From the NCBI RefSeq assembly GCF_000787775.1, contig NZ_BBPM01000009.1, positions 133,812 to 184,405 of the forward strand: 50,594 nt of DNA, given 5' to 3'. The number at the start of each line of letters is the position of its first letter. The first letter of the stretch is position 1. This DNA comes from Streptacidiphilus carbonis. GTDB taxonomy: Bacteria; Actinomycetota; Actinomycetes; Streptomycetales; Streptomycetaceae. A program made the position numbers and the translations under genes. This document shows positions 10,749-28,804 of this stretch, piece after piece. Under the pieces are notes generated by a model. It saw nothing but the letters and a program-made list of their open reading frames with translations. It ran no database searches and was not told the origin of the DNA.

Positions 10749-10849
10749 CCGTCCATTGTGCGGCGGGCGCGCGCAGTCAGGGTGGTACTGCGTTTCCTAC
10801 CGTCGAAGCCTCCCTGGCTGTCCGTCCGTGCCGCGCCGAAGCTGGATCC

Positions 10850-11548
10850 ATGGAAACCATTACCTTCATCACCGGGGCCAACAAGGGCCTGGGCTACGAG
10901 ACCGCCCGCCGCCTCACCGAACTCGGCCACACCGTCGTCCTCGGAGCCCGCGACGCCGGGCGCGGACAGGCGGCCGCCGACCGGCTCGGCCTCCGTTTCG
11001 TGCGCATCGACGTCACCGACGACGCCTCCGTCGCCGCGGCGGCCGCCGACATCCAGGCTCACGAGGGCCGCGTCGACATCCTGATCAACAACGCCGGCAT
11101 CATCGGGTCGCACGCTCCGGCGGAGGAGCTCACCGCGGCGGACGCGACCGCGGTCTTCGAGACCAATGTGATCGGCGTGGTCCGGGTCACCGGCGCGTTC
11201 CTGCCGCTGCTGCGCAAGTCGGCGAGCCCGTCGGTGGTCAATGTCAGCAGCGGCATGGGCTCGCAGGCGCTCACCCATGACCCCGGCCGGGTCGAGTCGC
11301 GGTTCGCCGCGCCGCTGTACACGGCCTCCAAGGCCGCGGTGACGATGCTCAGCACCCAGTACGCCAAGGCCCTGCCCGATATCCGGGTGAACGCGGTCGA
11401 CCCCGGCTACACCGCCACCGACTTCAACGCCCACAGCGGCCCGCAGACCGTCACCGAGGGGACCGACGCGATCGTCGCCCTGGCGACCGAGCCCGCCGAC
11501 GCCGGTACCGGTCGCTTCGTCGACCGCTTCGGCCCCGTCGCCTGGTAG
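10850..11548 (+). CDS. Short-chain dehydrogenase/reductase (SDR)
   Basis: A 232-aa NAD(P)-dependent oxidoreductase of the classical SDR type. The cofactor motif is TGANKGLG at the N-terminus, followed by NNAG, the serine in VNVSSGMG and the catalytic Tyr and Lys in YTASKAAV. The carbonyl substrate cannot be told from sequence. It diverges from the MmyB-type regulator over a 101-base gap that should hold both promoters. It ends just before a strong hairpin terminator shared with the convergent pectinase gene. Confidence 0.92.
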   Translation: METITFITGANKGLGYETARRLTELGHTVVLGARDAGRGQAAADRLGLRFVRIDVTDDASVAAAAADIQAHEGRVDILINNAGIIGSHAPAEELTAADATAVFETNVIGVVRVTGAFLPLLRKSASPSVVNVSSGMGSQALTHDPGRVESRFAAPLYTASKAAVTMLSTQYAKALPDIRVNAVDPGYTATDFNAHSGPQTVTEGTDAIVALATEPADAGTGRFVDRFGPVAW

Positions 11549-11609: not shown

Positions 11610-14084
11610 TCAGGAGTGCGGGAATCCGGGGAAGGAGCAGTGCTGCCCACCGCTGTGGCCGTGGTGTCCGGGGTCGGGGACTCCGGTGTCGGTGACGGTT
11701 ACGCCGGGGCCGGCGGGGGAGAGGTCGGTGTCGTCGAGGGTGATGTTCGCGTAGGCGGCGGTCACCGAGGTGGCGTCCAGGTGGACGTGGCGCAGGGTGA
11801 TCCCGGACGGGTAGTCCGCGCTGTAGCCCTCCAGGTCGGAGGTGGCGCCGGTGACCGAGTCGACGGCGGTGGCCCCGTCGATGGTGACCGACTTGAACCA
11901 GGGGATCGACGTTCCGGTCGGGGCCGCGTAGTTGGGGGTGACCACGATCAGGTTCTGCACGCCGGTCATGCAGGTGTCGGCATACGAGAGATTGGTGACG
12001 GTGCCGCCCGCGCCCGGGTAGCTCTTCACCCTGATGCCGTTGTCCAGACTGCTGACGTTGCCCCAGATGTCCTTTCCGTCCAGGGTGTTGTGGGTGAACT
12101 GGATGGCGTCCAGGCCGTAAGTGGTGCCGCTGCCGATGGACAGGCCGTGGGTGCCGTAGCAGTGCAGACCGCTGACGCTCACCTGGGACTCGGCGGCGTT
12201 GTTGGTGGTCAGCGCCACGCAGTCGTCGCCGTCCATCACTGAGGAGTCGGTGATGGTGGCCTCGGTGCTGGAGTCCAGGTCGAAGCCGTCGGTGTTGAGC
12301 GTGTTCGCCGGGGTGTCGACGGTGACGCCCCAGACGGTGGCGCCGATGCTCCTGGCGATGAACAGGTGCTGCTTGGCCGCGTTCGCCAGGGTGACATGGG
12401 CGAAGGTGACGTCGTCGGCGGAGTTGGACTGGATCAGCCGCGGGTTGACCTGCTTGAGGCCCTCGTCCTTGGCCGTGACCGCCAGGTCCCACCACGAGGC
12501 CGTGGTGCCCAGCACGGTCAGGTCGCCGCGGCCGTCGATCCGGCCCTGGTGCGCCCCGGTGCCGGTGCCCTCGACGCCCGCGTCACGGCCGTTGACCGAG
12601 ACGAACGGGTTGCAACCGGTGCCGGTGGAGCCGATCGAGCCGCAGACCGCCTTGCCCGCCTGCTGGTAGGCGGTTGCGTCACGGGTGGCGTAGAGCGTGG
12701 CCTTCTCGCCGACCACCAGGTACTCCCCGGCGTGCACGGTGAGCGGCGCGGACAGGAAGTCGGCGGGATGGGTGCCCGGCGTGCGTCCGGTGGTCAGCAG
12801 CACGCTGGCGCCGGTGCCGGCGCAGGCGTCCAGCGCAGCCTGGATCCGGGCGGTGTCCGGCGGCGCGGCCTCGTCCGCGGCGCTGAAGAGCCGGTCCTTG
12901 CCGATGGTCAGAGCGGCCGTCAGAGTCCGGCAGACCGACGGGAGCCGGGGTTCGCTGACGGAGCGCCGGTCGCCGGTGGTCGGCGGCGGCGCGGTGGCGG
13001 CTGCGACCGGGTCCCAGCCGTCGGCCCCGGACAGGTAGGAGGCGGCGGTGTCGTCGGCGGCGGCGGCCTCGTCCAGCACCGGGCGGACGTCCGAGGCCGC
13101 GGTGGCGGCGCCGGGGCCGGTGTTGCCGTACTCGCCGTAGCGGCCACTGCTCCAGGTCGCGCCGGAGATGCCCAGCCAGGGCCCCGCAGTGTTGACGGCC
13201 TGGGGGAGCAGCGTGTCCCGGAACACCGCCTGGGGGTCGGAGTCGGTGGCCGGCTTCCAGGCCCGGCCCAGGTAGAGGGCGTTGTCGGCCAGGGTGGTGC
13301 TGACCGTCGAGCCGGTGACCAGGATGCCGTGGGACAGCGCGGCGGGGGTCGCCGGGGCGGTCAGATAGGCCTTGCTGTAGATGCCGTCGTTGAGCGCGTC
13401 GATGGTGGAGCGGTCCACGACCAGGCTGCCGTTGCCGAAGATGAAGTCGACGTCGCCGCTGACCTCGGAGTCGTAGACGTACTGGCGCAGATCGGTGGTG
13501 GCGGACGAGTCCCAGCTCAGCAGGGTGTCCTGGTGGCCGTAGAAGGCGTCGTGCAGGTACTGCTGCCGGTCGCCCTCCATGGCGATCGCCACGGCCTGGG
13601 TGCCGGTGACGGTGGGGTCGACGGTCTTGTCGAAGGTGTTGGCGAAGGTCAGGTACTCGGCGGTGAAGTCGTTGGCCTTCACGTGCACGGTGGCCGACCC
13701 CTCGGTGCCGTAGGCCTTGCCCGTGAGCGGGTTGACCTCCTGGTTGTAGTCGGCGGAGGTGATCACCACGTCGGCGGCCCGATGGCTGGCCCCCTCCAGG
13801 GTCAGGTGCAGCTTGGCCGCAGGGACGGTGACCCGCTCGGCGTAGCTGCCCGGGGCGATGGAGATCAGGTACGGGGTGGCCGAGTCGTCCGGCACCGCGT
13901 CCACGGCGGCCTGGACGGTGCTGTACTCCGCGCCGCTCTTGGCGACGGTGAGGGTGACGGTGCTCGTGCCGGTGGTGCTGGTGCTGGTGCTGGTGGCGCT
14001 GTCGGCGAGGGCCTGGCCGGTGGTGCCGCACAGGAGCAGTGCGGGCACACCGATCAGCCCCGCCGTCAGACGGCGGAGTCTCAT
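11610..14084 (-). CDS. Secreted bifunctional pectinase: pectin methylesterase (CE8) fused to polygalacturonase (GH28)
   Basis: An 824-aa exported protein with a Sec signal peptide (cleaved near LADSA, residue 28). Residues 45-340 are a carbohydrate esterase family 8 domain: Gln163 in TQAVAIAM, catalytic Asp186 in GHQDTLL, Asp213 in DVDFIFG and Arg274 in LGRAW. A short linker (about 360-385) leads to a GH28 right-handed beta-helix at 390-800, with NTDG (597-600), the acid pair in GDDC (620-621), His646 in GTHG and RVK (685-687). All key residues of both enzymes are present. The esterase would remove methyl groups from homogalacturonan and the hydrolase cut the freed chain outside the cell. It follows the other methylesterase by 60 bases, and an AAGGGA site precedes the ATG. 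Confidence 0.93.
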   Translation of the reverse strand: MRLRRLTAGLIGVPALLLCGTTGQALADSATSTSTSTTGTSTVTLTVAKSGAEYSTVQAAVDAVPDDSATPYLISIAPGSYAERVTVPAAKLHLTLEGASHRAADVVITSADYNQEVNPLTGKAYGTEGSATVHVKANDFTAEYLTFANTFDKTVDPTVTGTQAVAIAMEGDRQQYLHDAFYGHQDTLLSWDSSATTDLRQYVYDSEVSGDVDFIFGNGSLVVDRSTIDALNDGIYSKAYLTAPATPAALSHGILVTGSTVSTTLADNALYLGRAWKPATDSDPQAVFRDTLLPQAVNTAGPWLGISGATWSSGRYGEYGNTGPGAATAASDVRPVLDEAAAADDTAASYLSGADGWDPVAAATAPPPTTGDRRSVSEPRLPSVCRTLTAALTIGKDRLFSAADEAAPPDTARIQAALDACAGTGASVLLTTGRTPGTHPADFLSAPLTVHAGEYLVVGEKATLYATRDATAYQQAGKAVCGSIGSTGTGCNPFVSVNGRDAGVEGTGTGAHQGRIDGRGDLTVLGTTASWWDLAVTAKDEGLKQVNPRLIQSNSADDVTFAHVTLANAAKQHLFIARSIGATVWGVTVDTPANTLNTDGFDLDSSTEATITDSSVMDGDDCVALTTNNAAESQVSVSGLHCYGTHGLSIGSGTTYGLDAIQFTHNTLDGKDIWGNVSSLDNGIRVKSYPGAGGTVTNLSYADTCMTGVQNLIVVTPNYAAPTGTSIPWFKSVTIDGATAVDSVTGATSDLEGYSADYPSGITLRHVHLDATSVTAAYANITLDDTDLSPAGPGVTVTDTGVPDPGHHGHSGGQHCSFPGFPHS

Positions 14085-14144
14085 GGGTCGGTTCCCTTTC
14101 CGGGAGGGTGGGTGCTCGGCAAGGAACGAAGGAGCGGGCGGGGT

Positions 14145-15578
14145 TCAGCCGTGCCGGGTCGGGTTCCAGCCCGACAGGACGGTCGCCGGATCGCTCCAGA
14201 GCGCCGCCTGAGCGGCCGTCAGCTGCTGGGAGCAGGCCAGTCGGGAGCCGGTGTCCAGCGGGCGTCCGGTCAGGTCGGTGGAGCCGTACTCCCAGAACTG
14301 CAGGTCGGCCCCGGCGGTGCAGTCCGCGTTGTTGAGCAGCCAGCCGGTCGGGGCGATCTGCGGGCCTATCGCCGTGTCGATGAAGACGGCCTGGCTGTGG
14401 GGGTAGACGGTGGGGTCGATCCGGCCCAGGTAGACCGATCCGTCGGCGACGCCGGCCGCGGCGGTCAGCCGGTCCCGCAGGAAGACATAGCCAGGGTGGC
14501 CGGCGTCGTTGCGGACCTGGGTGACATAGCCGGCGTGCAGCGACCTGATCTCGCTGTCCTGGATCAGTACCGCGCCGAATCCCCAGGTGAAGTCCACGTC
14601 CCCCTCGATGTAGCTGCGGGTGACGAAGCCGCGACCCTGGAGCCGCAGGGTGTCCTGGTAGGAGAGCAGTCGGACCCGGTCCAGCGCGATCCGGTCGCCG
14701 TTGCCCCGGAACGCCTCGGCCTGCGAGCCGCCGTAGGGGGTGGTGTTGTGCAGGGTGAGGTCGCGCAGGGTGAAGTCGTCGGCCTCGACGTTGAAGGAGG
14801 CGCGCCAGCAGTTGCTGTCGTCGTGCCCGGGGATCAGCTGGCGCGGGCAGATGCCGACCGCGTGCGCGCTGTTCAGGGTGTTGTTGTTGGTGTACTGGAT
14901 GGTGGTGGCCGCGGGGTCGGGCCCGGTGCCCTGCACGGTGAGGTGGTTCTTGCCGGTCGGCACCCAGTCCAGCTCGGTGTAGCTACCGGGGCGCACCTCG
15001 ACCGTGTAGGGGCGGCTGCTGCCGGTGGGCACCGCGTCGATGGCGCCCTGCACGGTGCAGAAGTCGCCGCGTCCGTCGGCCGAGACGGTGAGGCTGCGGC
15101 CGGTCGGGGCGTGCGCCCTGGTCCGGAAGGTGCGGCTGAGCGGGGCGGTCAGGGTGCTGAGCACTCCCGCGTCCACGGTGACCGTGTAGCGGTGGCCGTA
15201 GGCGAGTTGGTGGTGCAGGTGCACGGCGGCGGTGTCGCCGTCCAGGGTGATCGGCGCGTAGCTGAACTCGTGCGGGCTGCCGTCGGCGTTCACGGCCCCG
15301 CCGACGGTGCGGCGGTAGGAGGCGGGATCGGCCAGGTCGATCCGGTCGGCGACCGCGCCGGTGGTGTCGTCGAGGACGGTCACGGAGCCGCTCGTGCCCA
15401 GCGTCGGTACGGTGGACGAGCGGATGCTCAGGGCGGTGTCCACGCAGGCAGAGGCGGCCGAACCCTGGACGCCGACCGTTGGGCCGGCAGCCGGCGCGGC
15501 TGCGGCGGCGCCGGGGGCCGGCAGTAACAGGGCGGCTGCGGCGGTGAGCAGCAGAGTGCGGGGCAGGGCAGATCGCAT
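14145..15578 (-). CDS. Secreted pectin methylesterase (CE8)
   Basis: A 477-aa enzyme with a signal peptide (residues 1-28 or so), an extra N-terminal beta-rich segment of about 120 residues, perhaps Ig- or Big-like, and a CE8 beta-helix from about 160. Catalytic residues are Asp309 in SYQDTL, Asp329 in GDVDFTWG and Arg386 in LGRI; note LGRI where LGRPW is usual. It removes methyl esters from pectin to give polygalacturonate. The ATG has GGGAGA upstream. It is the first gene of a leftward operon with the fused pectinase and has its own promoter and operator copy at 15600-15656. Confidence 0.92.
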   Translation of the reverse strand: MRSALPRTLLLTAAAALLLPAPGAAAAAPAAGPTVGVQGSAASACVDTALSIRSSTVPTLGTSGSVTVLDDTTGAVADRIDLADPASYRRTVGGAVNADGSPHEFSYAPITLDGDTAAVHLHHQLAYGHRYTVTVDAGVLSTLTAPLSRTFRTRAHAPTGRSLTVSADGRGDFCTVQGAIDAVPTGSSRPYTVEVRPGSYTELDWVPTGKNHLTVQGTGPDPAATTIQYTNNNTLNSAHAVGICPRQLIPGHDDSNCWRASFNVEADDFTLRDLTLHNTTPYGGSQAEAFRGNGDRIALDRVRLLSYQDTLRLQGRGFVTRSYIEGDVDFTWGFGAVLIQDSEIRSLHAGYVTQVRNDAGHPGYVFLRDRLTAAAGVADGSVYLGRIDPTVYPHSQAVFIDTAIGPQIAPTGWLLNNADCTAGADLQFWEYGSTDLTGRPLDTGSRLACSQQLTAAQAALWSDPATVLSGWNPTRHG

Positions 15579-15599
15579 GGGGGATCTCCCACTCTCACG

Positions 15600-15620
15600 T
15601 ATGAAATCTCATATATGACG
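15600..15620 (-). promoter_or_regulatory. Operator copy A for the pectin locus
   Basis: Read on the minus strand this is TCATATATGAGATTTCAT plus ACG. It matches the copy at 15780-15800 at 18 of 21 positions, including 11 consecutive bases (TATATGAGATT). Its core ATGAGATTTCAT is an imperfect 12-base palindrome. It lies directly after the -10 of the methylesterase promoter, where a bound repressor would cover the transcription start. The adjacent FCD-type GntR protein is the obvious candidate to bind. Confidence 0.7.
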
Positions 15621-15627
15621 AGCCGCG

Positions 15628-15656
15628 AGATTACGGACCGGTGGACCGGCCGTCAA
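15628..15656 (-). promoter_or_regulatory. Promoter for the pectin methylesterase operon
   Basis: On the minus strand TTGACG (15656-15651), a 17-base spacer, and TAATCT (15633-15628) match the consensus for the principal sigma factor. Transcription would start near 15621, at the edge of operator copy A, about 45 bases ahead of the ATG at 15578. Confidence 0.7.
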
Positions 15657-15740
15657 CGCCTCGGCGCACACTGTGTCCGGTCTGTGCACATCGGCTTCCA
15701 GCTGAGCGTCCGTCAGTCACGGGAACCTGGCCGCGACCCC

Positions 15741-15769
15741 TTGACCATCGCCGCGAGGACCCTTAGCGT
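15741..15769 (+). promoter_or_regulatory. Promoter for the galacturonate operon
   Basis: TTGACC (15741-15746), a 17-base spacer, and TAGCGT (15764-15769) form a near-consensus principal-sigma promoter facing right. The expected start, near 15776, is next to operator copy B. The leader to the chosen GTG start at 15865 would be about 90 bases. Confidence 0.7.
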
Positions 15770-15779
15770 CTGCGACGGA

Positions 15780-15800
15780 TCGTATATGAGATTCCATGCA
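15780..15800 (+). promoter_or_regulatory. Operator copy B for the pectin locus
   Basis: Read rightward this is TCGTATATGAGATTCCAT plus GCA, the second copy of the element at 15600-15620 and in the same orientation relative to its own promoter. An 11-base perfect inverted pair (15605-15615 and 15783-15793) results from the two copies facing opposite ways. Its position just after the -10 suggests repression of the GntR gene and the whole operon. Confidence 0.7.
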
Positions 15801-15864
15801 GGACCGCAGCAGCGCCGCAGTAGTATCGCGTGTTCGCACCGTGCACCAGCCAGGAGCAGCAGAC

Positions 15865-16530
15865 GTGCCCGAGATCCTTGCCAAGAACGGACAGGCCCGC
15901 CCCGGCGCCCTGCCCTCCCGTACCGAGGCCGTGCTGGAGTCCATCAAGCACTCCATCCTGACCGGGGAGCTGAAGCCCGGTCAGGCCCTGGTCGAGACGG
16001 ACCTGGCCGAGCAGCTGGGCGTCTCCAAGACGCCGGTCCGGGAGGCGCTGAAGACCCTGGCCGGTTCCGGGCTGGTCGTCATGAGCCCCTACAAGGGCGC
16101 GGCCGTACGCGAGGTCGACCAGGCGCACGCCCGCTGCGTGTACGACATGCGGCTGCTGCTGGAGCCGGTCGCCGCCGCCCGCACCGCCGCGGGCGCCGTC
16201 GACTGGGAGGACGCCCGGCGTGCCCTCGACCTCGCCGACCAGGCCCAGGACACCGCCGAGCGCTCGCTCGCCAACCGCGCCTTCCACCGGGCGCTGTACT
16301 CCGGCTGCGGCAATCCGCTGCTGGTGCGGACCCTGGACGAACTGCGGGACCAGACGGCGCTGCTGTCCAGCGCCGCCTGGGCCCGGCAGCCCTCCTGGGA
16401 GCAGGAGGCACGCGAGCACCGGGCGATCCTGGCCGCCGCCCGCTCCCGCGAGGCGGACCAGGTACGGGATCTGATGCGGGCTCATATCGGTGCCTTCGCT
16501 GCCCGGAACTTCCCCGAGGACGGGATCTGA
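15865..16530 (+). CDS. GntR family regulator, FCD (FadR) subfamily
   Basis: A 221-aa regulator from the GTG at 15865, chosen because AGGAG lies eight bases upstream; an ATG at 15796 is in frame but has no ribosome site and overlaps operator copy B. The winged helix is LKPGQALVETDLAEQLGVSK then TPVREALKTLAGSGLV. The C-terminal helical FCD domain shows the metal/ligand pattern (YDMRLLLEPVAA, FHRALYSGCGN, EHRAILAAARSREAD). Relatives sense sugar acids such as galacturonate, which fits the operon. It is the first gene of nine and its stop overlaps the next ATG by one base. Confidence 0.92.
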   Translation: MPEILAKNGQARPGALPSRTEAVLESIKHSILTGELKPGQALVETDLAEQLGVSKTPVREALKTLAGSGLVVMSPYKGAAVREVDQAHARCVYDMRLLLEPVAAARTAAGAVDWEDARRALDLADQAQDTAERSLANRAFHRALYSGCGNPLLVRTLDELRDQTALLSSAAWARQPSWEQEAREHRAILAAARSREADQVRDLMRAHIGAFAARNFPEDGI

Positions 16531-17485
16531 TGACCACGGAGAACGAGGTGCCCCTGGCACCGCAGGAGACGCAGACCCCGCTGGACGCGCTGCGCGCCCG
16601 GCTGTCCACCGTCGTCGCCATCCCGGTGACGCCGTTCCGGGACGACGGCTCGGTGGACTGGGACAATCACGCCGCCCTGATCCGCCGCATCGTCGACCAC
16701 GGCGTCGAGGTGGTCACCCCCAACGGCAACACCGGCGAGTTCTACACCCTCACCGAGGCGGAGACCCGCCGCGCCGTCGAGTCCGCGGTCGCGGCCGTGG
16801 ACGGCAGGGCCGAGGTGATGGCCGGGGTCGGCCTTGACATCGCCAGCGCCGTGGCCGGGGCGCTGGACGCCAGGTCGGCGGGCGCCGGTTCGCTGATGGT
16901 GCACCAGCCGGTGCACCCCTACCGCTCGGCCGAGGGCTGGATCGAGTACCACCGCGCCATCGCCGACGCCGTGCCCGAGCTGGGCGTGGTGCTCTATGTC
17001 CGCGACCCCAGGATCGACGGCTGGCAGATCGCCGAACTGGCCGACCGCAGCCCCAATGTGATCGGAGTGAAGTACGCGGTCCCCGACCCGGTTCGGTTCG
17101 CCTCGGTGGCCCGCGACGCCGGACTGCACCGGTTCGCCTGGATCGCCGGGCTGGCCGAGCTGTCCACCCCCGGCTACTGGGCGGTCGGCGCGACCGGCTT
17201 CACCTCCGGGCTGGTCAATGTCGTCCCGCAGTTGTCCGCGGCCCTGCTGGAGGCGCTGCGCGGCGGAGACTTCGCCAAGGCGATGCGGGTGTGGGATTCG
17301 GCCCGGGTCTTCGAGGAGCTGCGGGCGGCGGACGCCTCCGCCGACAACGTCAGCGTGGTCAAGGAGGCCCTGCAGCAGCTCGGCCTGTCCGGCCGGGCGG
17401 TGCGGCCGCCGTCCCGGGTGCTTCCCGAGGACCTGCGCGACCGGATCTCCGGACTGATAGGCCAGTGGCGGAACGAGGGCTGGCT

Positions 17486-17489
<4 letters not shown>
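16530..17489 (+). CDS. DHDPS/NAL-family sugar-acid dehydratase or aldolase (probable 5-dehydro-4-deoxyglucarate dehydratase)
   Basis: A 319-aa class I aldolase-fold (TIM barrel) enzyme. The Schiff-base Lys is Lys181 in GVKYAVPD, the supporting Tyr is Tyr156 in VVLYVRDP, and the carboxylate-binding loop is NGNTGEFYTLT. In the oxidative uronate route a family member (KdgD) converts 5-keto-4-deoxyglucarate to alpha-ketoglutarate semialdehyde; another member does the equivalent step on 2-keto-3-deoxy-L-arabonate. The uronate dehydrogenase at the end of the same operon favours the first. It overlaps the regulator by one base and the next gene by four. Confidence 0.85.
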
Positions 17490-19246
<1,757 letters not shown>

Positions 19247-19330
19247 CACACCCGCAGTTCTCAGGACCCTCAAAAAGCCGAGCACAGCACAGCCCCGCTC
19301 ACCACCACTGACCGAAGGGCTCCATCAGCC

Positions 19331-20608
19331 ATGTCCGCAGACAGCGTGGTCCGCAACACCGACGACACCCCGGACGCGAGCGGCTCCTCCAGAGGCCCGT
19401 CCCGCCGCCGGGTGATCAGCACCCTCGCCGCTGGCGCCGCGGCCGTCCCGGTCCTGGCCGCCTGCGGCGCGCCCAGCACCAGTACGAGTAGCAGCAGCGC
19501 CGCGCCCAGCACCCTCGCCGACAAGCCGTCCAAGCCGGTGACCCTGAACATCCTCGACGTCGCCGGGAACCTGAAGCTCACCCAGCCGATCATCGACGCC
19601 TTCAAGGCGAAGTACCCCGACTACGTCTCGAAGGTCACCACCACCACCGGCACCGCTCCCGAGCTGGCTCCCAAGGTCCAGGCCCAGCAGCAGGGCGGCA
19701 ACGTCCAGATCCAGCTGGTGCTGACCGGCACCGACGGGCTGTCGGCCGGGATCCAGAAGGGCCTGTGGTACGACCTCAAGCCGTACTACGCCACCTTCTT
19801 CCCCGGCCTGATGTCCAACTACAGCGCCGGCGCCGCCTCGATGGCCTCCCTCGCCCAGGACCAGGGCATCGAGCTGGTCTGGTACCCGTCCGGACCGCTG
19901 CTGGAGTACGACCCGGCGAAGGTGACCTCGGTGCCCGCCACCACCGACGCGCTGCTGGAGTGGGCCAAGGCCAACCCCGGCAAGTTCCAGTACGCCCAGC
20001 CGCGCAACTCGGGCCCCGGGCGCACCTTCCTGATGGGCCTGCCGTACCTGCTCGGCGACACCGACCCGACCGACCCGGTCAACGGCTGGGCCAAGACCTG
20101 GGCCTACCTCACCGAGCTCAACAAGTACATCAGCAGCTACCCGTCCAAGACCTCGGCCATCATGACCAACCTGGCCCAGGGCACCTCCCCGATGATCACC
20201 AGCACCACCGGCTGGTACATCAACCCCAAGGCCCTGGGCACCGTCCCGGCGTCGATGAAGGTCGGCAAGTTCGACAACATGACCTGGGTCAGCGACGCCC
20301 AGTACGGGGTGATCCCCAAGGGCGTCAGCAACGACGAGCTGATCGCCGCGCTGAAGCTGCTGGCCTTCATCCTCACCCCGGAGCAGCAGGCCGTCACCTA
20401 CGACCAGGGCTACTTCTACCCCGGCCCGGCGGTCAAGGGAGTGACGCTCAGTCAGGCGCCGGCCAGTTCCCAGCAGGCGATCGCCAAGTTCGGCGACCCG
20501 GACTTCGACGGCTGGATCGCCAACAACCCGATCAAGAACTCGCTGCCCGCCACCGCCCAGGTCACCGCCTTCGACCTGTGGGACAAGAAGATCGGCTCGA
20601 CCAAGTGA
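19331..20608 (+). CDS. ABC transporter substrate-binding lipoprotein
   Basis: A 425-aa periplasmic-type binding protein exported by the Tat route and lipidated. SRRRVIS (residues 24-30) is the twin-arginine segment and VLAAC ends the signal, making Cys45 the lipid anchor; a Ser/Thr-rich tether follows. The fold is that of family 1-type extracellular solute-binding proteins, with the partner ATPase and permeases looking closest to the spermidine/putrescine/iron group. The 84-base gap upstream is the largest in the front half of the operon and could hold an internal promoter, though I see none. Expected cargo is galacturonate, oligogalacturonide or another pectin-derived sugar acid. Confidence 0.88.
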   Translation: MSADSVVRNTDDTPDASGSSRGPSRRRVISTLAAGAAAVPVLAACGAPSTSTSSSSAAPSTLADKPSKPVTLNILDVAGNLKLTQPIIDAFKAKYPDYVSKVTTTTGTAPELAPKVQAQQQGGNVQIQLVLTGTDGLSAGIQKGLWYDLKPYYATFFPGLMSNYSAGAASMASLAQDQGIELVWYPSGPLLEYDPAKVTSVPATTDALLEWAKANPGKFQYAQPRNSGPGRTFLMGLPYLLGDTDPTDPVNGWAKTWAYLTELNKYISSYPSKTSAIMTNLAQGTSPMITSTTGWYINPKALGTVPASMKVGKFDNMTWVSDAQYGVIPKGVSNDELIAALKLLAFILTPEQQAVTYDQGYFYPGPAVKGVTLSQAPASSQQAIAKFGDPDFDGWIANNPIKNSLPATAQVTAFDLWDKKIGSTK

Positions 20609-21798
20609 GCACGGTGACCCCGATGACGACCGCCAAGCCCGTCCCGAGCACAGAGCCCGACGCCGGGGCCGCAGCCCGCCCCGCCTCCCAACTGGGGGCA
20701 CTGGAACTGCGCGGCATCAGCCGCGCCTACGGCGCCCACACCGCGCTGCACCCGCTGGACCTGACCATCAGGGGCGGCGAGTTCGTCGCCCTGCTCGGCC
20801 CCTCGGGCTGCGGCAAGACCACCGCGCTCAACTCGCTGGCCGGCCTGCTGCCGCTGACCGCGGGCGAGATCGTGCTGGACGGCAGGCGGATCGACACCCT
20901 GCCGCCGGAGAAGCGCGGCTTCGGCATGGTCTTCCAGAACTACGCCCTGTTCCCGCATCTGACGGTGCGGGCCAATGTCGCCTTCGGGCTGAAGATGCGC
21001 GGCGTCGGCAAGGCCGAGACCACCCGCAGGGTGGACGCGGTGCTCGCCCTGGTCCATCTCGGCGAGCAGGCCCACAAGCATCCCGGTCAGCTGTCCGGTG
21101 GCCAGCAGCAGCGCGTCGCCATCGCCCGCGCCATCGTGATGGAGCCGCCGCTGGTGCTGATGGACGAGCCGCTGTCCAACCTGGACGCCGCGCTGCGGCT
21201 GGAGATGCGCAGCGAGATCCGGCGGATCCACCAGGAGTTCGGCCTCACCACCCTCTATGTGACGCACGATCAGGAAGAGGCGCTGTCGCTCGCCGACCGA
21301 CTGGTGGTGCTGCACGAGGGCCGGGTCAGCCAGATCGGCACCCCGGCCGACCTCTACGAGCACCCGGCCAACCCGCATGTGGCGGCGTTCATGGGCTACC
21401 GCAACCTGCTGCCGCTCACCGTCACCAGCGCGGACGCCGCAGGAGCGGCAGCTACCGGCCGCGGGCTGACGGTGCGTGGAACCGCGGTGGGCGACGGCCA
21501 GTTGCGGGAGGGCGGGCCGGTGACGGTGGCCATCCGCCCCGAGGACCTGCGGATCGCCGGGGCGGACGAGCCCGCGCTGGGCGAGGCCGTGGCCGAGATC
21601 GTCGAGTACCACGGCCGGGTACTGCATGTGGAGGCAGTCACCCGCGAGGGGGACCGGATCCACCTCAAGTCCTCCGGCACGGTGCGCCCCGGTGACGCGC
21701 TGTCGGTCGCCGTCGACGCCGAACGGGCGCTGTTCTTCCCGGAGCCTGCGCCCTCCACGGTTGCGGCAACCGAGCCGGCCGGGGAGGTGCCGTCGTGA
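20605..21798 (+). CDS. ABC transporter ATP-binding protein (PotA-like)
   Basis: A 397-aa ATPase, started at the GTG at 20605 that overlaps the previous stop by four bases (an ATG at 20623 is the alternative). Walker A is GPSGCGKTT (65-73), Q-loop Gln111, signature LSGGQQQR (163-170), Walker B VLMDEP and the switch His221 in VTHDQ. The last 120 residues form a TOBE-like regulatory domain (VAIRPEDLRI), as in PotA, FbpC and MalK-type importers. It energises the two permeases that follow. Confidence 0.92.
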   Translation: MSTVTPMTTAKPVPSTEPDAGAAARPASQLGALELRGISRAYGAHTALHPLDLTIRGGEFVALLGPSGCGKTTALNSLAGLLPLTAGEIVLDGRRIDTLPPEKRGFGMVFQNYALFPHLTVRANVAFGLKMRGVGKAETTRRVDAVLALVHLGEQAHKHPGQLSGGQQQRVAIARAIVMEPPLVLMDEPLSNLDAALRLEMRSEIRRIHQEFGLTTLYVTHDQEEALSLADRLVVLHEGRVSQIGTPADLYEHPANPHVAAFMGYRNLLPLTVTSADAAGAAATGRGLTVRGTAVGDGQLREGGPVTVAIRPEDLRIAGADEPALGEAVAEIVEYHGRVLHVEAVTREGDRIHLKSSGTVRPGDALSVAVDAERALFFPEPAPSTVAATEPAGEVPS

Positions 21799-22697
21799 CC
21801 GTCGTCCTCCCGCAGAGCCCGTCCCGTCCCGCACTGCGCCACCGCCTCGCCGAACGCGGTGTCGACCGCACCCTGCTGCTGGTGCTGCCCGGCGCCCTCG
21901 CCGTCATCGCGCTGTTCTGCTACCCCTTCCTGTACGGGCTGCAACTCTCCTTCCAGCCCGCGTCCGGCGGAGTCCTGGGCGCCTACCACGCCTTCTTCTC
22001 CGAGCCGTTCGCCCGCAAGTCCATCTGGCAGACCTTCTCGCTGGCCATCCCGGCATCGCTGATCAACGTCGGGGTCTCCGTCCCCATCTCCTACCGGATG
22101 CGCCGCGACTTCCGCGGCAAGCGGCTGCTGCTGGCGCTGCTGGTGGTGCCGATCACGCTGGGAACCGTGCTCACGGCCGAGGGCATCCTGGAGTTCTACG
22201 GCCCGGCCGGATGGTTCAACCACACCCTGAACCTGCTCGGCCTGGCCTCCTCCCCGGTCCAGCTCACCATGAACTACACCGGGGTGCTGCTCTCACTGAT
22301 CATCAGCGGCTTCCCCTTCGCCTACCTGCTCACCCACTCCTACCTCTCCGGTATCCACCCCAGCCTGGAGAAGGCCGCCTCCACCCTGGGCGCGGACTGG
22401 TGGCAGCGGTTCCGGCACATCACCTTCCCGCTGCTGCTGCCGGGCCTGATGACCACCTTCTGCCTCAGCTTCGTGATGGCGTTCGCGGTGTTCCCCTCCG
22501 CGATGATGGTCGGCGACCCGGACGGGAAGACGCACGTCATCTCCATCGAGGCCTACGAGGCGGCGCTGGAGCACTTCGACTACGCCCAGGGCTGCGCCGA
22601 CGCGATGATCATGACGGTGCTGATGCTCGTCGTCATCGTCGCCGTCACCACCCTGCGCTCCCGGCTCTACAGCGGATCCACCGGAGGCAAAGGATGA
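21795..22697 (+). CDS. ABC transporter permease 1
   Basis: A 300-aa inner-membrane permease with about six transmembrane helices, of the binding-protein-dependent type. The cytoplasmic coupling (EAA) loop reads EKAASTLGADWWQRFRHITF followed by PLLLPG. It overlaps the ATPase by four bases (GTGA) and the second permease by four (ATGA). The arrangement and sequence are closest to PotB-like permeases rather than the CUT1 sugar type. Confidence 0.9.
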   Translation: MTVVLPQSPSRPALRHRLAERGVDRTLLLVLPGALAVIALFCYPFLYGLQLSFQPASGGVLGAYHAFFSEPFARKSIWQTFSLAIPASLINVGVSVPISYRMRRDFRGKRLLLALLVVPITLGTVLTAEGILEFYGPAGWFNHTLNLLGLASSPVQLTMNYTGVLLSLIISGFPFAYLLTHSYLSGIHPSLEKAASTLGADWWQRFRHITFPLLLPGLMTTFCLSFVMAFAVFPSAMMVGDPDGKTHVISIEAYEAALEHFDYAQGCADAMIMTVLMLVVIVAVTTLRSRLYSGSTGGKG

Positions 22698-23575
22698 GCG
22701 CCGTACTCGACAGGCCCGCGACCGCGGCCCCCGGCACGGACCCCGACGCCGGACGGCGCCGGATCGCCATCAAGCCGGGCGCCTGGATCACCTGGGGCGT
22801 GCTCGGCTTCTTCTTCCTCAACCTGCTCGGCGTGATCGTCACGGTGCTGCTCAACTCCTTCGGCAGCAGCTGGTTCCGGAGCTGGCTGCCCGGCGGCTGG
22901 ACCGGGCACTGGTACAGCGACGCCTGGTCCGAGTTCAGCCTCGGACAGGTGCTGTGGACCACGGTCGAGGTGACCTTCCTGGTCGTGCTGATCTCGCTGG
23001 TGCTGGCCGTCCCCGCCTCCTACGCGCTGGCCCGCCGGGACTTCCCCGGCAAGAAGCTGGTGATGGGGCTGTTCGTGCTGCCGATCCTGGTGCCGCCGAT
23101 CGCCTACGGCATCCCGCTGGCCACCGTGCTCTACAAGTTCCACCTGGCCGGCTCGGTCACCGGGGTGGTGCTGGCCAACCTGGTGCCGTCGATCCCCTTC
23201 GTGGTGTTCACGATGACCCCGTTCATCGAGCAGATCGACCCCAAGATCGAGGCGGCGGCCCGGATGTGCGGAGCCAGGACCTGGACCGTGCTGTCCCGGA
23301 TCCTGGCGCCGCTGCTGCTGCCCGGGATGCTGGCCGCCGGAATCCTGGTGCTGGTGCGCACCTTCGGGATGTTCGAGCTGACCTTCCTCACCTCGGGCCC
23401 GACCAGCCAGACCCTGATCGTCACCCTCTTCTCGGCCGTCAACTCGGCCGGCATCCGCTCCACCCAGTCGATCGACGCCATGGCCGTGATCTACACCGGA
23501 ACGATGGCCGTGCTGCTGCTGATCGCGCTGCGCTTCGTCAACCCCACCCAGCTCGTCGCCCGCTCAACGGACTGA
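22694..23575 (+). CDS. ABC transporter permease 2
   Basis: A 293-aa permease, partner of the one before, with six predicted membrane helices after a short cytoplasmic N-terminus (first helix WITWGVLGFFFLNLLGVIV). The coupling loop is EAAARMCGARTWTVLSRILA then PLLLPG. PotC-like. An AAAGG site sits within the end of permease 1, four bases of which overlap its ATG. Confidence 0.9.
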   Translation: MSAVLDRPATAAPGTDPDAGRRRIAIKPGAWITWGVLGFFFLNLLGVIVTVLLNSFGSSWFRSWLPGGWTGHWYSDAWSEFSLGQVLWTTVEVTFLVVLISLVLAVPASYALARRDFPGKKLVMGLFVLPILVPPIAYGIPLATVLYKFHLAGSVTGVVLANLVPSIPFVVFTMTPFIEQIDPKIEAAARMCGARTWTVLSRILAPLLLPGMLAAGILVLVRTFGMFELTFLTSGPTSQTLIVTLFSAVNSAGIRSTQSIDAMAVIYTGTMAVLLLIALRFVNPTQLVARSTD

Positions 23576-23592
23576 GAGGCACAGCCACCGCC

Positions 23593-25023
23593 ATGACCAT
23601 GCGTCAGCCAACCCCGAGCCGCCGTCAGCTCCTCAGCGCCGCCATCGCCCTGGGCGGGGCCGCCGCGGCCACCGCCGCCCTAGGCGGCACCGCCTCCGCC
23701 GCGGGCCCGGCCGAAACCCCGCGCAGCACGGACCGGACGGCCGACCGCGCGGCCGACCGCATCGTCCGCTCCATCCGCCGCCCCAGCATCCCCCGGCGGT
23801 CCTTCCCGATCACCCGCTACGGCGCGGTCCCCGGCGGAGCCGCCGACACCGCCGCGGCCAACACCGCCGCCATCGACGCCGCCGTCAAGGCCGCCAACCG
23901 GCGCGGCGGCGGCGTCGTCACCGTCCCGGCGGGGGAGTGGGCCACCGGCCCGATCCATCTGCTCTCCCGGGTCGAACTGCATCTGGAAGCCGGCTCCACG
24001 CTGCTCTTCTCCACCGACCCGGCCGCCTACCTGCCCACCGTGTTCAGCCGCTGGCAGGGCATCGAGCTGATGAACTACTCGCCGCTGATCTACGCCTTCG
24101 AGCAGCACGACATCGCCGTCACCGGCAGCGGGGTGCTCGACGGCCAGGCCTCCACCGCCAACTGGTGGGCCTGGAAGGCCCAGGGCGACCTGGACTTCGC
24201 CGTCTTCGAGGCCACCGTCAACGCCGGACTGCCGGTCGCCCAGCGCGACGGCACGCTCTACCACTTCCGGCCGACCTTCATCGAGCCCTACCGCTGCGAG
24301 CGGGTGCTGATCGAGGGCGTCACCTTCCGCAACTCCCCGATGTGGCACCTGCACCCCACCCTCAGCCAGGACGTCACCGTGCACGGCGTCACCATCGCCT
24401 CCACCGGCCCCAACACCGACGGCATCGACCCCGAGTGCTGCGACGGCGTCCTCATCGACGGCGCGAACATCAACGTCGGCGACGACTGCATCGCCATCAA
24501 GTCCGGCCGCAACACCGACGGCCGCAGGCTGAACATCCCCAGCCAGAACATCGTGGTGCAGAACACCACCTTCGCCAACGGCCACGGCGGCATCACCATC
24601 GGCAGCGAGATGACCGGCGGGGTGCGCAACGTCTACGCCCGCGACCTGACGATGACCAGCACCGGGCTGCAGTCGGGCCACCGGCTGAAGACCAACTCGG
24701 TGCGCGGCGGCTTCATCGAGAACAGCAATGTCTACCGGGTGGACGTCAGCGCCATCGGCGGCCCGCTGCTGCTCATCGACTACACCTACGGCGAGGGCAA
24801 CACCGGCACCTATCCGCCGACCGTCACCGACATCAACCTCAGCCACTGGACGGTCGCCGCCGCCACCCAGGGCTGGAACGTCGTCGGCTACGCCACCGAC
24901 CCGGTCGGCACGGTCAGGCTCAGCGACATCACCGTCGACGGCGCGCTGACCAAGGCCAATGTCGCCACCTATGTCACCGACCTGGAGCTCAGCAATGTGG
25001 TGATCGACGGAGTGCCCCAGTGA
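23593..25023 (+). CDS. Tat-exported GH28 polygalacturonase-like glycoside hydrolase
   Basis: A 476-aa beta-helix hydrolase. The twin-arginine signal is SRRQLLSAAIALGG, cut near TASAAG (residue 38). Active-site residues of GH28 are complete: NTDG with Asp276, the acid pair Asp297-Asp298 in GDDC, His331 in GHGG and RLKTN (364-368). The insertion pattern (FRPTFIEPYRCERVLIEGV) is that of bacterial exo-acting or oligogalacturonide-releasing members, so it may trim chains to galacturonate near the cell surface for the adjacent importer. An ATG at 23599 is an alternative start. It is followed at once by the dehydrogenase gene (GTGA overlap). Confidence 0.9.
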   Translation: MTMRQPTPSRRQLLSAAIALGGAAAATAALGGTASAAGPAETPRSTDRTADRAADRIVRSIRRPSIPRRSFPITRYGAVPGGAADTAAANTAAIDAAVKAANRRGGGVVTVPAGEWATGPIHLLSRVELHLEAGSTLLFSTDPAAYLPTVFSRWQGIELMNYSPLIYAFEQHDIAVTGSGVLDGQASTANWWAWKAQGDLDFAVFEATVNAGLPVAQRDGTLYHFRPTFIEPYRCERVLIEGVTFRNSPMWHLHPTLSQDVTVHGVTIASTGPNTDGIDPECCDGVLIDGANINVGDDCIAIKSGRNTDGRRLNIPSQNIVVQNTTFANGHGGITIGSEMTGGVRNVYARDLTMTSTGLQSGHRLKTNSVRGGFIENSNVYRVDVSAIGGPLLLIDYTYGEGNTGTYPPTVTDINLSHWTVAAATQGWNVVGYATDPVGTVRLSDITVDGALTKANVATYVTDLELSNVVIDGVPQ

Positions 25024-25811
25024 CGGAGGTCCTCCTCACCGGCGCGGCCGGGCGGATCGGCAGCTACCTCCGGGCCGGGCTGCCCCCGCTCGGCTGGCAG
25101 CCGCGCTGCCTGGACCTGGCCGCGCCGGCCGCGCCGGACGGCCTGCGGTGGACGCTCGCCGACATCGCCGACCCGGCGTCGTCGGCCGCCCTGGAACAGG
25201 CCTGTCGGGGCGTCAGCGCCGTGGTGCACCTGGCCGGGATCCCCGGCGAGGCGGACTTCGACGCGCTGCGGCGGGCCAACATCGACGGCGTCCACCAGGT
25301 GTTCGAGGCCGCCCGCCGGGCCGGGGTCCCTCGGATCGTCTACGCCGGCAGCAACCACGCCGTCGGCTTCCACGAGAGCGGCGCCCCGCTGGCGGCGGAC
25401 CTCGCGCCGCGTCCGGACTCGCTCTACGGCGTCACCAAGGCCTTCGGCGAGGCACTCGGCTCCTACTACGCCGACCGGTACGGCATGGACGTGGCCAGCG
25501 TCCGCATCGGCAGCTGCTTCGACGAACCGCCGACCGTCCGCGCGCTGGCCACCTGGCTCAGCCCCGACGACGCGGTCCGCCTGGTCGACGCCCTGCTCCG
25601 GGCCCCGTCCTTCGGACACGCCGTGCTGTACGGGATCTCGGCCAACACCCGCGCCTGGTGGGACCTGGGCACCGCCCGCGCCCTCGGCTACGCCCCGCAG
25701 GACGACGCCGAGGCCTTCGCACCGCGGCTCCTCGCCGAACAGGGCCCGCTGCCGCCGCACGACCCGGACGCCCGCTACGCCGGCGGGAAGGCGGCGGTCG
25801 GCATCTGGTGA
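25020..25811 (+). CDS. udh: Uronate dehydrogenase-like NAD-dependent enzyme
   Basis: A 263-aa extended-type SDR, close to the usual 265 aa of uronate dehydrogenase. The cofactor motif is TGAAGRIG (7-14), the signature SNHAVGFHESG (Ser111 on) is characteristic of the family, and the catalytic pair is Tyr136-Lys140 in YGVTKAFGE. It oxidises D-galacturonate (or glucuronate) to the aldarolactone, the first step of the oxidative uronate pathway. It is the last gene of the operon. The GTG start overlaps the GH28 stop by four bases. A role on another sugar cannot be excluded but the neighbours argue strongly for uronate. Confidence 0.88.
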   Translation: MTEVLLTGAAGRIGSYLRAGLPPLGWQPRCLDLAAPAAPDGLRWTLADIADPASSAALEQACRGVSAVVHLAGIPGEADFDALRRANIDGVHQVFEAARRAGVPRIVYAGSNHAVGFHESGAPLAADLAPRPDSLYGVTKAFGEALGSYYADRYGMDVASVRIGSCFDEPPTVRALATWLSPDDAVRLVDALLRAPSFGHAVLYGISANTRAWWDLGTARALGYAPQDDAEAFAPRLLAEQGPLPPHDPDARYAGGKAAVGIW

Positions 25812-28271: not shown

Positions 28272-28705
28272 GCTGTGCTCTCCTCACCGGTACCGGTCCG
28301 CAGCGTACGGCTGCGCCCGCGGAACTCCGCGATCAGCTCGCCGCCCTCTCGTCGGACCGTGACGTCGTAGATCCCGCTGCGACCGAAACGGGTGCGTTCC
28401 CTGGCGGTCGCCACCAGCAGGTCGCCCTCGCGGGCCGGGGCGACGAAGTCGATGTCGGCGGCCGCCGCCACCGTCGCCGGGCCGTGGCTGTTGCAGGCGC
28501 AGGCGAAGGCGGTGTCGGCCAGCAGGAACAGGTAGCCGCCGTGGGCCGTGCCGTGCCCGTTGACCATGGCGGGGGTGACCGCCATCCGCAGTACCGCCTC
28601 GCCCGCACCGGCTTCCAGCAGCTCGATCCCGAGTCCCCGGGAGGCCTGGTCGGCGGCGAACATCAGCTGGGCGGGGCCCTGCGCGGCGGATCTGGTGGAT
28701 GGCAT
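28268..28705 (-). CDS. paaI: Hotdog-fold thioesterase PaaI
   Basis: A 145-aa hotdog thioesterase. The family motif is NGHGTAHGGYLFLLADTAFA, with the catalytic Asp in LADTAFA. It is thought to free CoA from blocked ring-hydroxylated phenylacetyl-CoA derivatives, a rescue function in the pathway. The ATG at 28705 has an excellent AAGGAGAGG site. First gene of the leftward paa unit; its -10 lies inside a palindrome. Confidence 0.93.
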   Translation of the reverse strand: MPSTRSAAQGPAQLMFAADQASRGLGIELLEAGAGEAVLRMAVTPAMVNGHGTAHGGYLFLLADTAFACACNSHGPATVAAAADIDFVAPAREGDLLVATARERTRFGRSGIYDVTVRREGGELIAEFRGRSRTLRTGTGEESTA

Positions 28706-28727
28706 TCCGACCTCTCCTTGTCTCCCG

Positions 28728-28761: not shown

Positions 28762-28804
28762 GTAATCCAGCCCCGCAAACGGCTGTCAAGGGACGAGGGC
28801 AACG

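What the first reader, a model, noticed from the sequence alone, without database searches (positions are those of the whole stretch)
11610..25811. Complete-looking pectin-to-keto-acid locus whose galacturonate branch has an IlvD/Edd dehydratase in the galactarate position
Extracellular methylesterases and GH28 enzymes, an importer, uronate dehydrogenase and a DHDPS-family dehydratase (KdgD-like) make up the oxidative galacturonate route, except that no enolase-superfamily galactarate dehydratase, GarD-type enzyme or lactone cycloisomerase is present. The only dehydratase in that place is an IlvD/Edd protein. Known family members use pentonates or hexonates, not aldarates. So either this is a new activity for the family, or the operon merges galacturonate oxidation with L-arabonate breakdown (both are pectin sugars), because IlvD plus DHDPS is also the L-arabonate pair. 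No alpha-ketoglutarate semialdehyde dehydrogenase is in the window.
Basis: partly seen in the sequence, partly recalled or inferred. Interest (0 to 1): 0.75.

Follow-up and report, generated by a model that had tools for sequence, protein, structure and literature searches.

The report
Predicted iron-sulfur galactarate dehydratase, pectin operon
A soil bacterium's pectin-digesting gene cluster carries an iron-sulfur enzyme that databases would name an arabinose-acid dehydratase but that, judged by its partner genes and altered substrate pocket, most likely dehydrates the six-carbon diacid made from pectin's main sugar, which would be a new job for its enzyme family.

Summary
The locus is as described: divergent pectinesterase genes and a GntR–DHDPS–IlvD–ABC importer–GH28–uronate dehydrogenase run, with no galactarate dehydratase among them. 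The DHDPS protein is not KdgD (134.6 bits, cut-off 374) but a sister clade, "DHDPS-A", found beside relatives of the Oceanobacillus galactarate dehydratase GalrD-II in 40 of 52 Bacillota loci and beside an IlvD in 16 of 20 actinobacterial loci. The window's IlvD belongs to a clade with intact catalytic residues but a rewritten substrate-recognition helix (Asp23→Arg and Trp30→Arg of L-arabinonate dehydratase: 42 of 42 members, 0 of 25 others). Relatives on proteobacterial plasmids share operons with DHDPS-A, KdgD, RraA-family proteins, tricarboxylate-type importers, aldehyde dehydrogenase and, once, a Udh relative plus lactonase. Best reading: the IlvD dehydrates galactarate to the D-threo keto-acid, and DHDPS-A turns that into ketoglutarate semialdehyde. 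This would be a new IlvD/Edd activity, and NCBI's model name "L-arabinonate dehydratase" (885.8 vs cut-off 882) would be wrong for this clade. I found no assay of it; the arabonate reading is disfavoured, not excluded. Against: several members stand without DHDPS-A or Udh, and two Chloroflexi loci pair DHDPS-A with a canonical IlvD.

The parts
11610..14084 (-). pectinesterase-GH28 fusion (824 aa)
   Evidence: PF01095 residues 46-330 and PF00295 residues 510-782
14145..15578 (-). second pectinesterase (477 aa)
   Evidence: PF01095 residues 163-433
15600..15613 (-). operator-like site TATGAGATTTCATA in front of the pectinesterase gene
   Evidence: one of only two matches to TATGAGATTYCATR (up to 1 mismatch) in the 8.46 Mb genome; reversed-pattern control 0
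15785..15798 (+). operator-like site TATGAGATTCCATG in front of the GntR-DHDPS-IlvD operon
   Evidence: the other genome match; the relative L158 has TATGAGATCTCATG just before its GntR gene
15865..16530 (+). GntR-family regulator (alternative start 15796)
   Evidence: GntR-type NCBIfam hits, none over a cut-off; relatives beside DHDPS-A
16530..17489 (+). DHDPS-A: predicted dehydratase/decarboxylase for 2-keto-3-deoxy-D-threo-hexarate
   Evidence: PF00701; below KdgD cut-offs; nearest PDB chains 3e96, 3d0c; separate clade; GalrD-II neighbour in 40 of 52 Bacillota loci
17486..19246 (+). IlvD/Edd [2Fe-2S] dehydratase: predicted D-threo-forming galactarate dehydratase
   Evidence: PF00920 + PF24877; NF009559 885.8 vs cut-off 882; catalytic residues kept, recognition helix changed
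19331..20608 (+). ABC solute-binding protein
   Evidence: PF13416
20605..21798 (+). ABC ATPase (start uncertain: 20605 or 20614)
   Evidence: PF00005 + TOBE_2
21795..22697 (+). ABC permease
   Evidence: PF00528
22694..23575 (+). ABC permease
   Evidence: PF00528
23593..25023 (+). GH28, possibly an exo-acting galacturonidase
   Evidence: PF00295; best NCBIfam alpha-D-galacturonidase NF049892 295.7, below its cut-off 800
25020..25811 (+). uronate dehydrogenase Udh
   Evidence: best PDB 3rft uronate dehydrogenase, E 1.5e-59, residues 2-257, with the SNH and LYGVxK stretches kept

Best explanation
The locus breaks pectin down to D-galacturonate outside the cell, imports it (or short oligomers), oxidises it with Udh to galactarolactone/galactarate, and dehydrates meso-galactarate with the IlvD/Edd enzyme at its D-galactonate-like end. 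That gives 2-keto-3-deoxy-D-threo-hexarate, the mirror image of KdgD's substrate. DHDPS-A, a sister of KdgD adapted to this enantiomer, dehydrates and decarboxylates it to alpha-ketoglutarate semialdehyde; an aldehyde dehydrogenase encoded elsewhere finishes the path. Shown by sequence: gene content, families, clades, conserved and altered residues, neighbourhoods. Inferred: substrate, stereochemistry, what is imported, lactone opening, last step.
For: (1) Partner: in Oceanobacillus bengalensis DHDPS-A (74% identical to 3d0c) lies 1 kb from a gene nearly identical (804 bits) to chain 2oqy/3es7/3hpf, which I recall as O. iheyensis GalrD-II; [quoted passage not shown] 40 of 52 Bacillota DHDPS-A loci have it (50% identity or more), 38 within 3.4 kb, in several gene orders; 37 have an aldehyde dehydrogenase. 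(2) DHDPS-A keeps KdgD's Lys, Tyr, Ser and the Thr modelled to hold the C6 carboxylate, but differs at Gly53, Pro194 and Ala214, three non-catalytic pocket positions mutated in a 2026 study, two of them on opposite sides of the site. (3) IlvD recognition helix: Arg for Asp23 and Arg for Trp30 in 32 of 32 clade members, 0 of 25 others, and in 10 of 10 proteobacterial plasmid members; helix Arg22-Trp30 forms the partner chain's active site. Clade support 100 with the plasmid members. (4) Operons of relatives: Salipiger, Paroceanicella, Roseinatronobacter have a tripartite tricarboxylate-type importer beside IlvD-DHDPS-A; Gemmobacter has GntR-DHDPS-A-ABC-MLE-SMP30 lactonase-Udh relative (41%)-IlvD-RraA-aldehyde dehydrogenase; Shinella and Paracoccus have IlvD with KdgD (60% to 4ur7) and DHDPS-A; Geomicrobium has IlvD with TctA/TctC, GalrD-II and DHDPS-A. 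An RraA-family protein has measured 2-keto-3-deoxy-glucarate dehydratase/decarboxylase activity in Flavobacterium (passages of PMC8563752), and an RraA gene stands in 10 of 10 plasmid loci. (5) Co-occurrence: of 396 phylum genomes 9 have DHDPS-A; the same 9 have this IlvD at 71% or more and all 9 have Udh; 8 of the other 387 have Udh.
Against: No activity measured. NCBIfam names the clade L-arabinonate dehydratase: 9 of 9 clade members tested pass NF009559, including the window; what that name rests on was not traced. Six genomes of another family carry the IlvD (66-68%) with no DHDPS-A or Udh hit at the cut-offs used, three of them without an informative neighbour among the proteins scanned. 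Of five plasmid loci taken from the IlvD list, three have neither DHDPS-A nor KdgD within 8-9 kb. Chloroflexi L137 and L141 pair DHDPS-A with a canonical IlvD. Four of 20 actinobacterial DHDPS-A loci show no IlvD in the flanks held. Streptomyces loci also hold a Gfo/Idh dehydrogenase and GH43 enzymes that would suit arabinose. 12 of 52 Bacillota loci lack GalrD-II. In S. jeojiense (93-96% identical genes) GH28, pectinesterases and Udh are not beside the operon, though the genome has a Udh.
Confidence: 0.7

Rival explanations
1. The IlvD is an L-arabonate (or D-fuconate/D-galactonate) dehydratase and DHDPS-A its 2-keto-3-deoxy acid dehydratase or aldolase; the operon joins galacturonate oxidation with another pectin sugar.
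For: NF009559 passed; IlvD+DHDPS is the arabonate pair; Streptomyces loci add Gfo/Idh and GH43.
Against: DHDPS-A has the KdgD Tyr and Thr, not the KdaD Glu and Phe; it neighbours GalrD-II; recognition helix differs; relatives stand with KdgD, RraA and TctABC; genome has AraA; the only sugar dehydrogenase in the operon is Udh.
Confidence: 0.14
2. The IlvD acts on galactarate but gives the usual 5-keto-4-deoxy-D-glucarate, and DHDPS-A is a divergent KdgD.
For: DHDPS-A keeps KdgD's catalytic residues; Shinella and Paracoccus have KdgD in the IlvD operon.
Against: Known sugar-acid IlvDs are strict for the C2/C3 configuration, which on galactarate gives the D-threo product (own derivation); DHDPS-A goes with GalrD-II, also where a KdgD is present; this genome already has two KdgD-family genes.
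Confidence: 0.09
3. The galacturonate branch uses an enolase-superfamily enzyme elsewhere in the genome and the IlvD has another, perhaps also diacid, substrate.
For: Seven strong enolase-superfamily genes exist; one (C135:232048) is nearest to the talarate/galactarate dehydratase model, 293.5 bits.
Against: That gene is below the cut-off of 500 and nearest in PDB to 3,6-anhydro-L-galactonate cycloisomerase; of the other six, one passes galactonate dehydratase and one is GudD-like; no GarD; none of the seven is over 28% identical to GalrD-II.
Confidence: 0.07

Closest known systems
L-arabinonate dehydratase of Rhizobium leguminosarum (RlArDHT, 5J84, 9EVV), sugar-acid dehydratase class of IlvD/Edd
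   Same: Three Cys cluster ligands, Mg ligands, Lys129 and Ser480 conserved; 606 bits
   Different: Recognition helix Asp23 to Arg, Tyr26 to Ser, Trp30 to Arg; Tyr448 to Gly; SGTA to SGTS; no C-terminal His in the window; other branch of the tree
Sugar-acid dehydratase of Paralcaligenes ureilyticus (PuDHT, 8EJ0)
   Same: Best PDB match, 629 bits
   Different: Prefers D-gluconate (section of PMC9314677); helix RDGFIYRSW against LRAFSHRSR
GalrD-II of Oceanobacillus iheyensis (D-threo-forming galactarate dehydratase, EC 4.2.1.158: recalled)
   Same: Predicted reaction and partner enzyme DHDPS-A
   Different: Unrelated fold, enolase superfamily; IlvD would be a non-homologous replacement
KdgD, 5-keto-4-deoxyglucarate dehydratase (4UR7)
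   Same: Lys, Tyr, Ser, Thr and Arg positions shared with DHDPS-A
   Different: Below KdgD cut-offs; separate clade; Gly53 to Asn, Pro193/194 absent, Ala213/214 to Gly
Udh-Gci/Gli-KdgD oxidative galacturonate route
   Same: Udh and a decarboxylating DHDPS-family dehydratase
   Different: An IlvD/Edd dehydratase stands where the lactone isomerase/cycloisomerase or an enolase-type dehydratase would be

Membership tests
IlvD/Edd superfamily | ILVD_EDD_N and ILV_EDD_C domains | tested here: met
   352.3 and 215 bits
IlvD/Edd superfamily | three Cys, Mg ligands, Lys, catalytic Ser | tested here: met
   C66, C134, C207, E98, D135, E461, K136, S488, each in 32 of 32 clade members
Sugar-acid dehydratase class (PMC9314677, PMC11316719) | C-terminal His, reported fully conserved | tested here: not met
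   window ends SPDPS; present in 8 of 32 clade members. Not a sharp mark here: only 9 of 23 non-PDB others end in His, 11 within the last two residues
Sugar-acid dehydratase class | GCDKTT, GHCM/NT and SGTA motifs | tested here: inconclusive
   GCDKTV, GHCMT, SGTS in the window; SGTS also in 8 of 25 others
L-arabinonate dehydratase | NCBIfam NF009559 cut-off 882 | tested here: met
   window 885.8; nine relatives of its clade 890.7-1011.3; canonical L137 fails at 859.8
L-arabinonate dehydratase | recognition helix as in RlArDHT (Asp23, Trp30) | tested here: not met
   Arg30 and Arg37
L-arabinonate dehydratase | activity on L-arabonate | not testable with these tools
   needs an assay
KdgD | TIGR03249 / NF002958 cut-offs | tested here: not met
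   134.6 of 373.95 and 153.7 of 278
KdgD | Schiff-base Lys, catalytic Tyr, Thr at the C6 carboxylate | tested here: met
   K181, Y156, T68 in all 86 rows compared, aligned with 4ur7
[quoted passage not shown]
   Tyr156 in all 86 rows
Uronate dehydrogenase | full-length similarity to a solved Udh | tested here: met
   3rft, 204.8 bits, residues 2-257
Galactarate dehydratase (D-threo-forming) | conversion of galactarate to the D-threo keto-acid | not testable with these tools
   inferred from partners and pocket

The most novel reading that the evidence does not exclude
The Arg-type IlvD clade, spread over Actinobacteria, Proteobacteria and at least one Bacillota, is an unrecognised aldarate-dehydrating branch of IlvD/Edd now filed as L-arabinonate dehydratase. 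In pectin degraders it replaces GalrD-II, makes the mirror-image keto-acid and pairs with its own dehydratase (DHDPS-A, elsewhere an RraA-family protein), so that some bacteria run two enantiomeric hexarate routes side by side.
Probability: 0.65. Interest if true: 0.68.

Novelty: new variant of a known kind. Interest (0 to 1): 0.58.

Why it matters
It would add aldarates to the substrates of a well-studied iron-sulfur dehydratase family, correct a database name that covers a whole clade, and give a function to two solved structures deposited only as dihydrodipicolinate synthase (3d0c, 3e96) as partners of GalrD-II. The prediction is chiral and can be decided by one coupled assay, and the enzyme pair would be useful for turning pectin waste into alpha-ketoglutarate.

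Tried and rejected
Tested whether the DHDPS protein is plain KdgD (rejected by models and trees). Looked for a standard galactarate dehydratase elsewhere: of nine enolase-family matches the seven strong ones were scanned, none over a galactarate-dehydratase cut-off; no GarD. Gfo/Idh and GH43 in Streptomyces kept as evidence for the rival. The C-terminal His first looked like a mark of the clade; a recount showed it is not, and it no longer carries weight. The operator-like motif was sought in 27 relatives' loci and two other loci of this genome: only L158 and, weakly, L142, so no regulon could be drawn. The few Amycolatopsis proteins scanned (4 of L151, 3 of L148) gave no replacing dehydratase. 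Two enolase-type genes beside DHDPS-A on Rhizobium tumorigenes and Streptomyces plasmids are not GalrD-II (24% identity or no listed hit). Structure prediction was not run, because coordinates cannot be measured here and the pocket lies at a dimer interface. The 2009 GalrD-II paper is not held. Literature searches show no report of an IlvD/Edd galactarate dehydratase; I saw listings, and of eleven papers outlines, passages or named sections; subscription journals are mostly missing.

Mistakes and limits: the query MLE_C118 was the wrong frame (mended). In some searches two rows were mislabelled by a name clash: 'PDB_3d0c' is 3e96 and 'PDB_3e96' is a duplicate of the window protein, so 3d0c is not in those trees. 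FastTree labels of 0.05 on the DHDPS-A node gave way to IQ-TREE values 99 and 98. The 80 loci are the best of 520 by similarity to 3d0c. Fifteen near-identical Streptomyces-type IlvDs were left out of the tree, and the tree used 28 chosen IlvDs plus an outgroup. The fourteen plasmid loci were picked by hand from 437 and 156 records. Genus g2 (L042-L049) is unnamed; I call it Streptomyces-type by likeness to named loci.
Full report
What is there. The window lies in G000:C131; the nearest relative among the loci fetched is Streptacidiphilus jeojiense (GntR 96%, DHDPS 93%, IlvD 94%; L158). Pfam and frame analysis confirm every gene in the finding. Two pectinesterase genes, one fused to GH28, run leftward; GntR, DHDPS, IlvD, the ABC importer, GH28 and Udh run rightward. 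Between the arms lie two copies of TATGAGATTYCATR in opposite orientation, the only two (up to one mismatch) in 8.46 Mb, reversed-pattern control 0; a GntR operator joining the esterase to the catabolic operon is the natural, untested reading.

Udh. The window Udh aligns over its length with 3rft, uronate dehydrogenase (204.8 bits). A Streptomyces viridochromogenes Udh has been measured on glucuronate and galacturonate (passages of PMC4476818); whether it is the ortholog of those seen here was not tested. A second Udh of this genome lies on contig C120 next to a KdgD-family gene.

The DHDPS protein. It scores 134.6 bits against TIGR03249 (cut-off 373.95) and 153.7 against NF002958 (cut-off 278). 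The proteins on C120 and C97 of this genome pass NF002958 (424.3 and 363.5) though not TIGR03249 (317.2 and 281.5). DHDPS-A is one side of a branch against KdgD and DapA (SH-aLRT 99; 98 with ten more from plasmids). It keeps Lys181, Tyr156, Ser226 and Thr68. In Acinetobacter KdgD the matching Tyr is the base and the Thr is modelled to hold the C6 carboxylate; KdaD of the arabonate path has Glu and, it seems, Phe there (PMC13398020, sections 2.1 and 2.2 part 1). Gly53, Pro194 and Ala214, the non-catalytic positions that study mutated, are Asn, missing and Gly in DHDPS-A.

What DHDPS-A goes with. A scan gave 80 loci, the best of 520. In Oceanobacillus bengalensis the next-but-one gene is nearly identical (804 bits) to chain 2oqy/3es7/3es8/3fyy/3gd6/3hpf, named muconate cycloisomerase in the PDB list. 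I recall that chain as O. iheyensis GalrD-II and its product as the D-threo keto-acid; the title of the 2009 paper was seen in a reference list. Of 52 Bacillota loci 40 have this gene at 50% identity or more, 38 within 3.4 kb, and 37 an aldehyde dehydrogenase. The 12 without it are L079-L083, L091, L101, L102, L104, L108, L122 and L125; L101 and L104 hold an enolase gene like the GudD-like one of this genome (32-33%) and a KdgD-like gene, and others an HpcH/HpaI aldolase. Of 28 loci outside Bacillota 19 have an IlvD (16 of 20 Actinobacteria, 3 of 6 Chloroflexi, 0 of 2 Thorarchaeota) and none GalrD-II. Geomicrobium halophilum (L127) has IlvD, GalrD-II and DHDPS-A in one direction, with TctA/TctC genes and an HpcH aldolase upstream.

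The IlvD protein. All cluster, Mg and base residues are kept. [quoted passage not shown] Among 57 aligned IlvDs the window's clade (32 rows) has Arg for Asp23 and Arg for Trp30 in every row and none of the 25 others has either; Tyr26 becomes Ser, Gly or, once, Asn; Tyr448 becomes Gly or Ala. Two arginines at the far end of the substrate are what a second carboxylate would call for; this is inference, not a measured contact. The C-terminal His reported for sugar-acid dehydratases is missing in the window but is not a clean mark. The clade is one branch: FastTree 0.84, IQ-TREE 70 for 17 rows and 90 for the 25 others, and 100 for 20 rows in the tree with ten plasmid members.

Operons of relatives on annotated plasmids (fourteen regions picked by hand, ten with IlvD). 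All ten IlvDs have Arg30, Arg37 and Arg73, and an RraA-family gene stands in each of the ten loci. Six have DHDPS-A and three KdgD (two of these both). Salipiger, Paroceanicella and Roseinatronobacter combine IlvD-DHDPS-A with a tripartite tricarboxylate-type importer, a type that others predicted for galactarate/glucarate in Halomonas (passages of PMC5507952). Gemmobacter has GntR-DHDPS-A-SBP-ABC-permeases, then MLE, SMP-30 lactonase, a Udh relative (41% identity), IlvD, RraA and aldehyde dehydrogenase: nearly the window's operon with the missing steps added. Five of the ten were chosen because they hit DHDPS-A, so the linkage count is biased; of the five chosen from the IlvD list one has DHDPS-A and KdgD, one KdgD, three neither. 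An RraA-family enzyme of Flavobacterium has measured dehydratase/decarboxylase activity on 2-keto-3-deoxy-glucarate (passages of PMC8563752), which could explain IlvD loci with RraA but no DHDPS-A, such as L051.

The name L-arabinonate dehydratase. NF009559 is passed by the window and nine of nine clade relatives tested, and missed by canonical L137, so the model follows this clade. The structurally characterised arabinonate dehydratase 5j83 lies on the other branch. In Rhizobium johnstonii 3841 the clade member is on pRL12 with a 2-hydroxyacid dehydrogenase, MLE, RraA and aldehyde dehydrogenase; the operon needed for arabinose is RL3617-RL3612, with RL3612 78% identical to Azospirillum AraC (passages of PMC4495286). 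RL3612 itself was not aligned here.

Stereochemistry. Sugar-acid IlvDs are strict for the C2/C3 configuration (passages of PMC9795676). meso-Galactarate shows that configuration at one end only; loss of water there gives 2-keto-3-deoxy-D-threo-hexarate, while KdgD's substrate is the L-threo form (PMC8563752 passages). This derivation is my own. The genome has a KdgD-family gene next to a GudD-like gene (3vdg, 603.5 bits) for the other enantiomer.

Co-occurrence. In one sample of 396 phylum genomes DHDPS-A is found in 9, this IlvD at 71% or more in the same 9, Udh in 17 including those 9; the 9 are one family, so few independent events. Of 14 further actinobacterial DHDPS-A genomes tested (of 20) 13 have Udh at a looser cut-off, 3 of 6 Chloroflexi, 0 of 5 Bacillota. 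In eight Streptomyces-type loci GntR, DHDPS-A and IlvD are always together, and six also hold Udh and a KdgD-family gene.

Against. Six genomes of family f18 hold the IlvD (66-68%) without DHDPS-A or Udh hits; L050, L052 and L053 are uninformative from the proteins scanned. Chloroflexi L137 and L141 have DHDPS-A near a canonical IlvD. Streptomyces loci add Gfo/Idh and GH43. No enzyme of the clade has been assayed as far as the searches show.

Verdict. Observation confirmed; new-activity reading best supported (0.70 for the full model), arabonate merger possible (0.14). It is a new substrate variant of a known enzyme family and a non-homologous replacement in a known pathway, not a new kind of system.

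Noticed in passing
window 26913-34650: Phenylacetate-type genes follow the pectin locus: AMP-binding ligase, two PaaA/PaaC proteins, a PaaD-like protein, an MFS transporter.
   Followed up: no
window 11610-14084: Pectinesterase and GH28 domains fused in one protein of 824 aa.
   Followed up: no
window 9879-11548: MmyB-like regulator divergent from a short-chain dehydrogenase.
   Followed up: no
window 36481-38364: Cholesterol-oxidase-type flavoprotein, PF09129.
   Followed up: no
L159 9076-11489 (G000:C97): KdgD-family gene next to a GudD-like enolase-superfamily gene: likely separate glucarate route in the same genome.
   Followed up: partly
L162 8514-14106 (G000:C120): Second Udh divergent from a KdgD-family gene, with an aldehyde dehydrogenase 2 kb further on.
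   Followed up: partly
L217-L224, L227, L229: RraA-family gene in each of ten plasmid loci with Arg-type IlvD: candidate keto-deoxy-hexarate dehydratase/decarboxylase or aldolase.
   Followed up: partly
L228 8161-14132 (Streptomyces sp. NBC_00963 plasmid): GntR, DHDPS-A, aldehyde dehydrogenase, enolase-type gene and MFS in a row: a non-GalrD-II enolase in the IlvD place.
   Followed up: no
L079-L083, L101, L102, L104, L123: Bacillota DHDPS-A loci with an HpcH/HpaI aldolase, some with Ldh_2 or 2-hydroxyacid dehydrogenases: possible second route for the same keto-acid.
   Followed up: no
L127 4018-9937: Geomicrobium locus with a KdgD fragment and a short enolase-superfamily gene beside full-length IlvD, GalrD-II and DHDPS-A.
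   Followed up: partly
L146, L157: Two Thorarchaeota bins carry a divergent DHDPS-A (35-37%) without IlvD or GalrD-II nearby.
   Followed up: no
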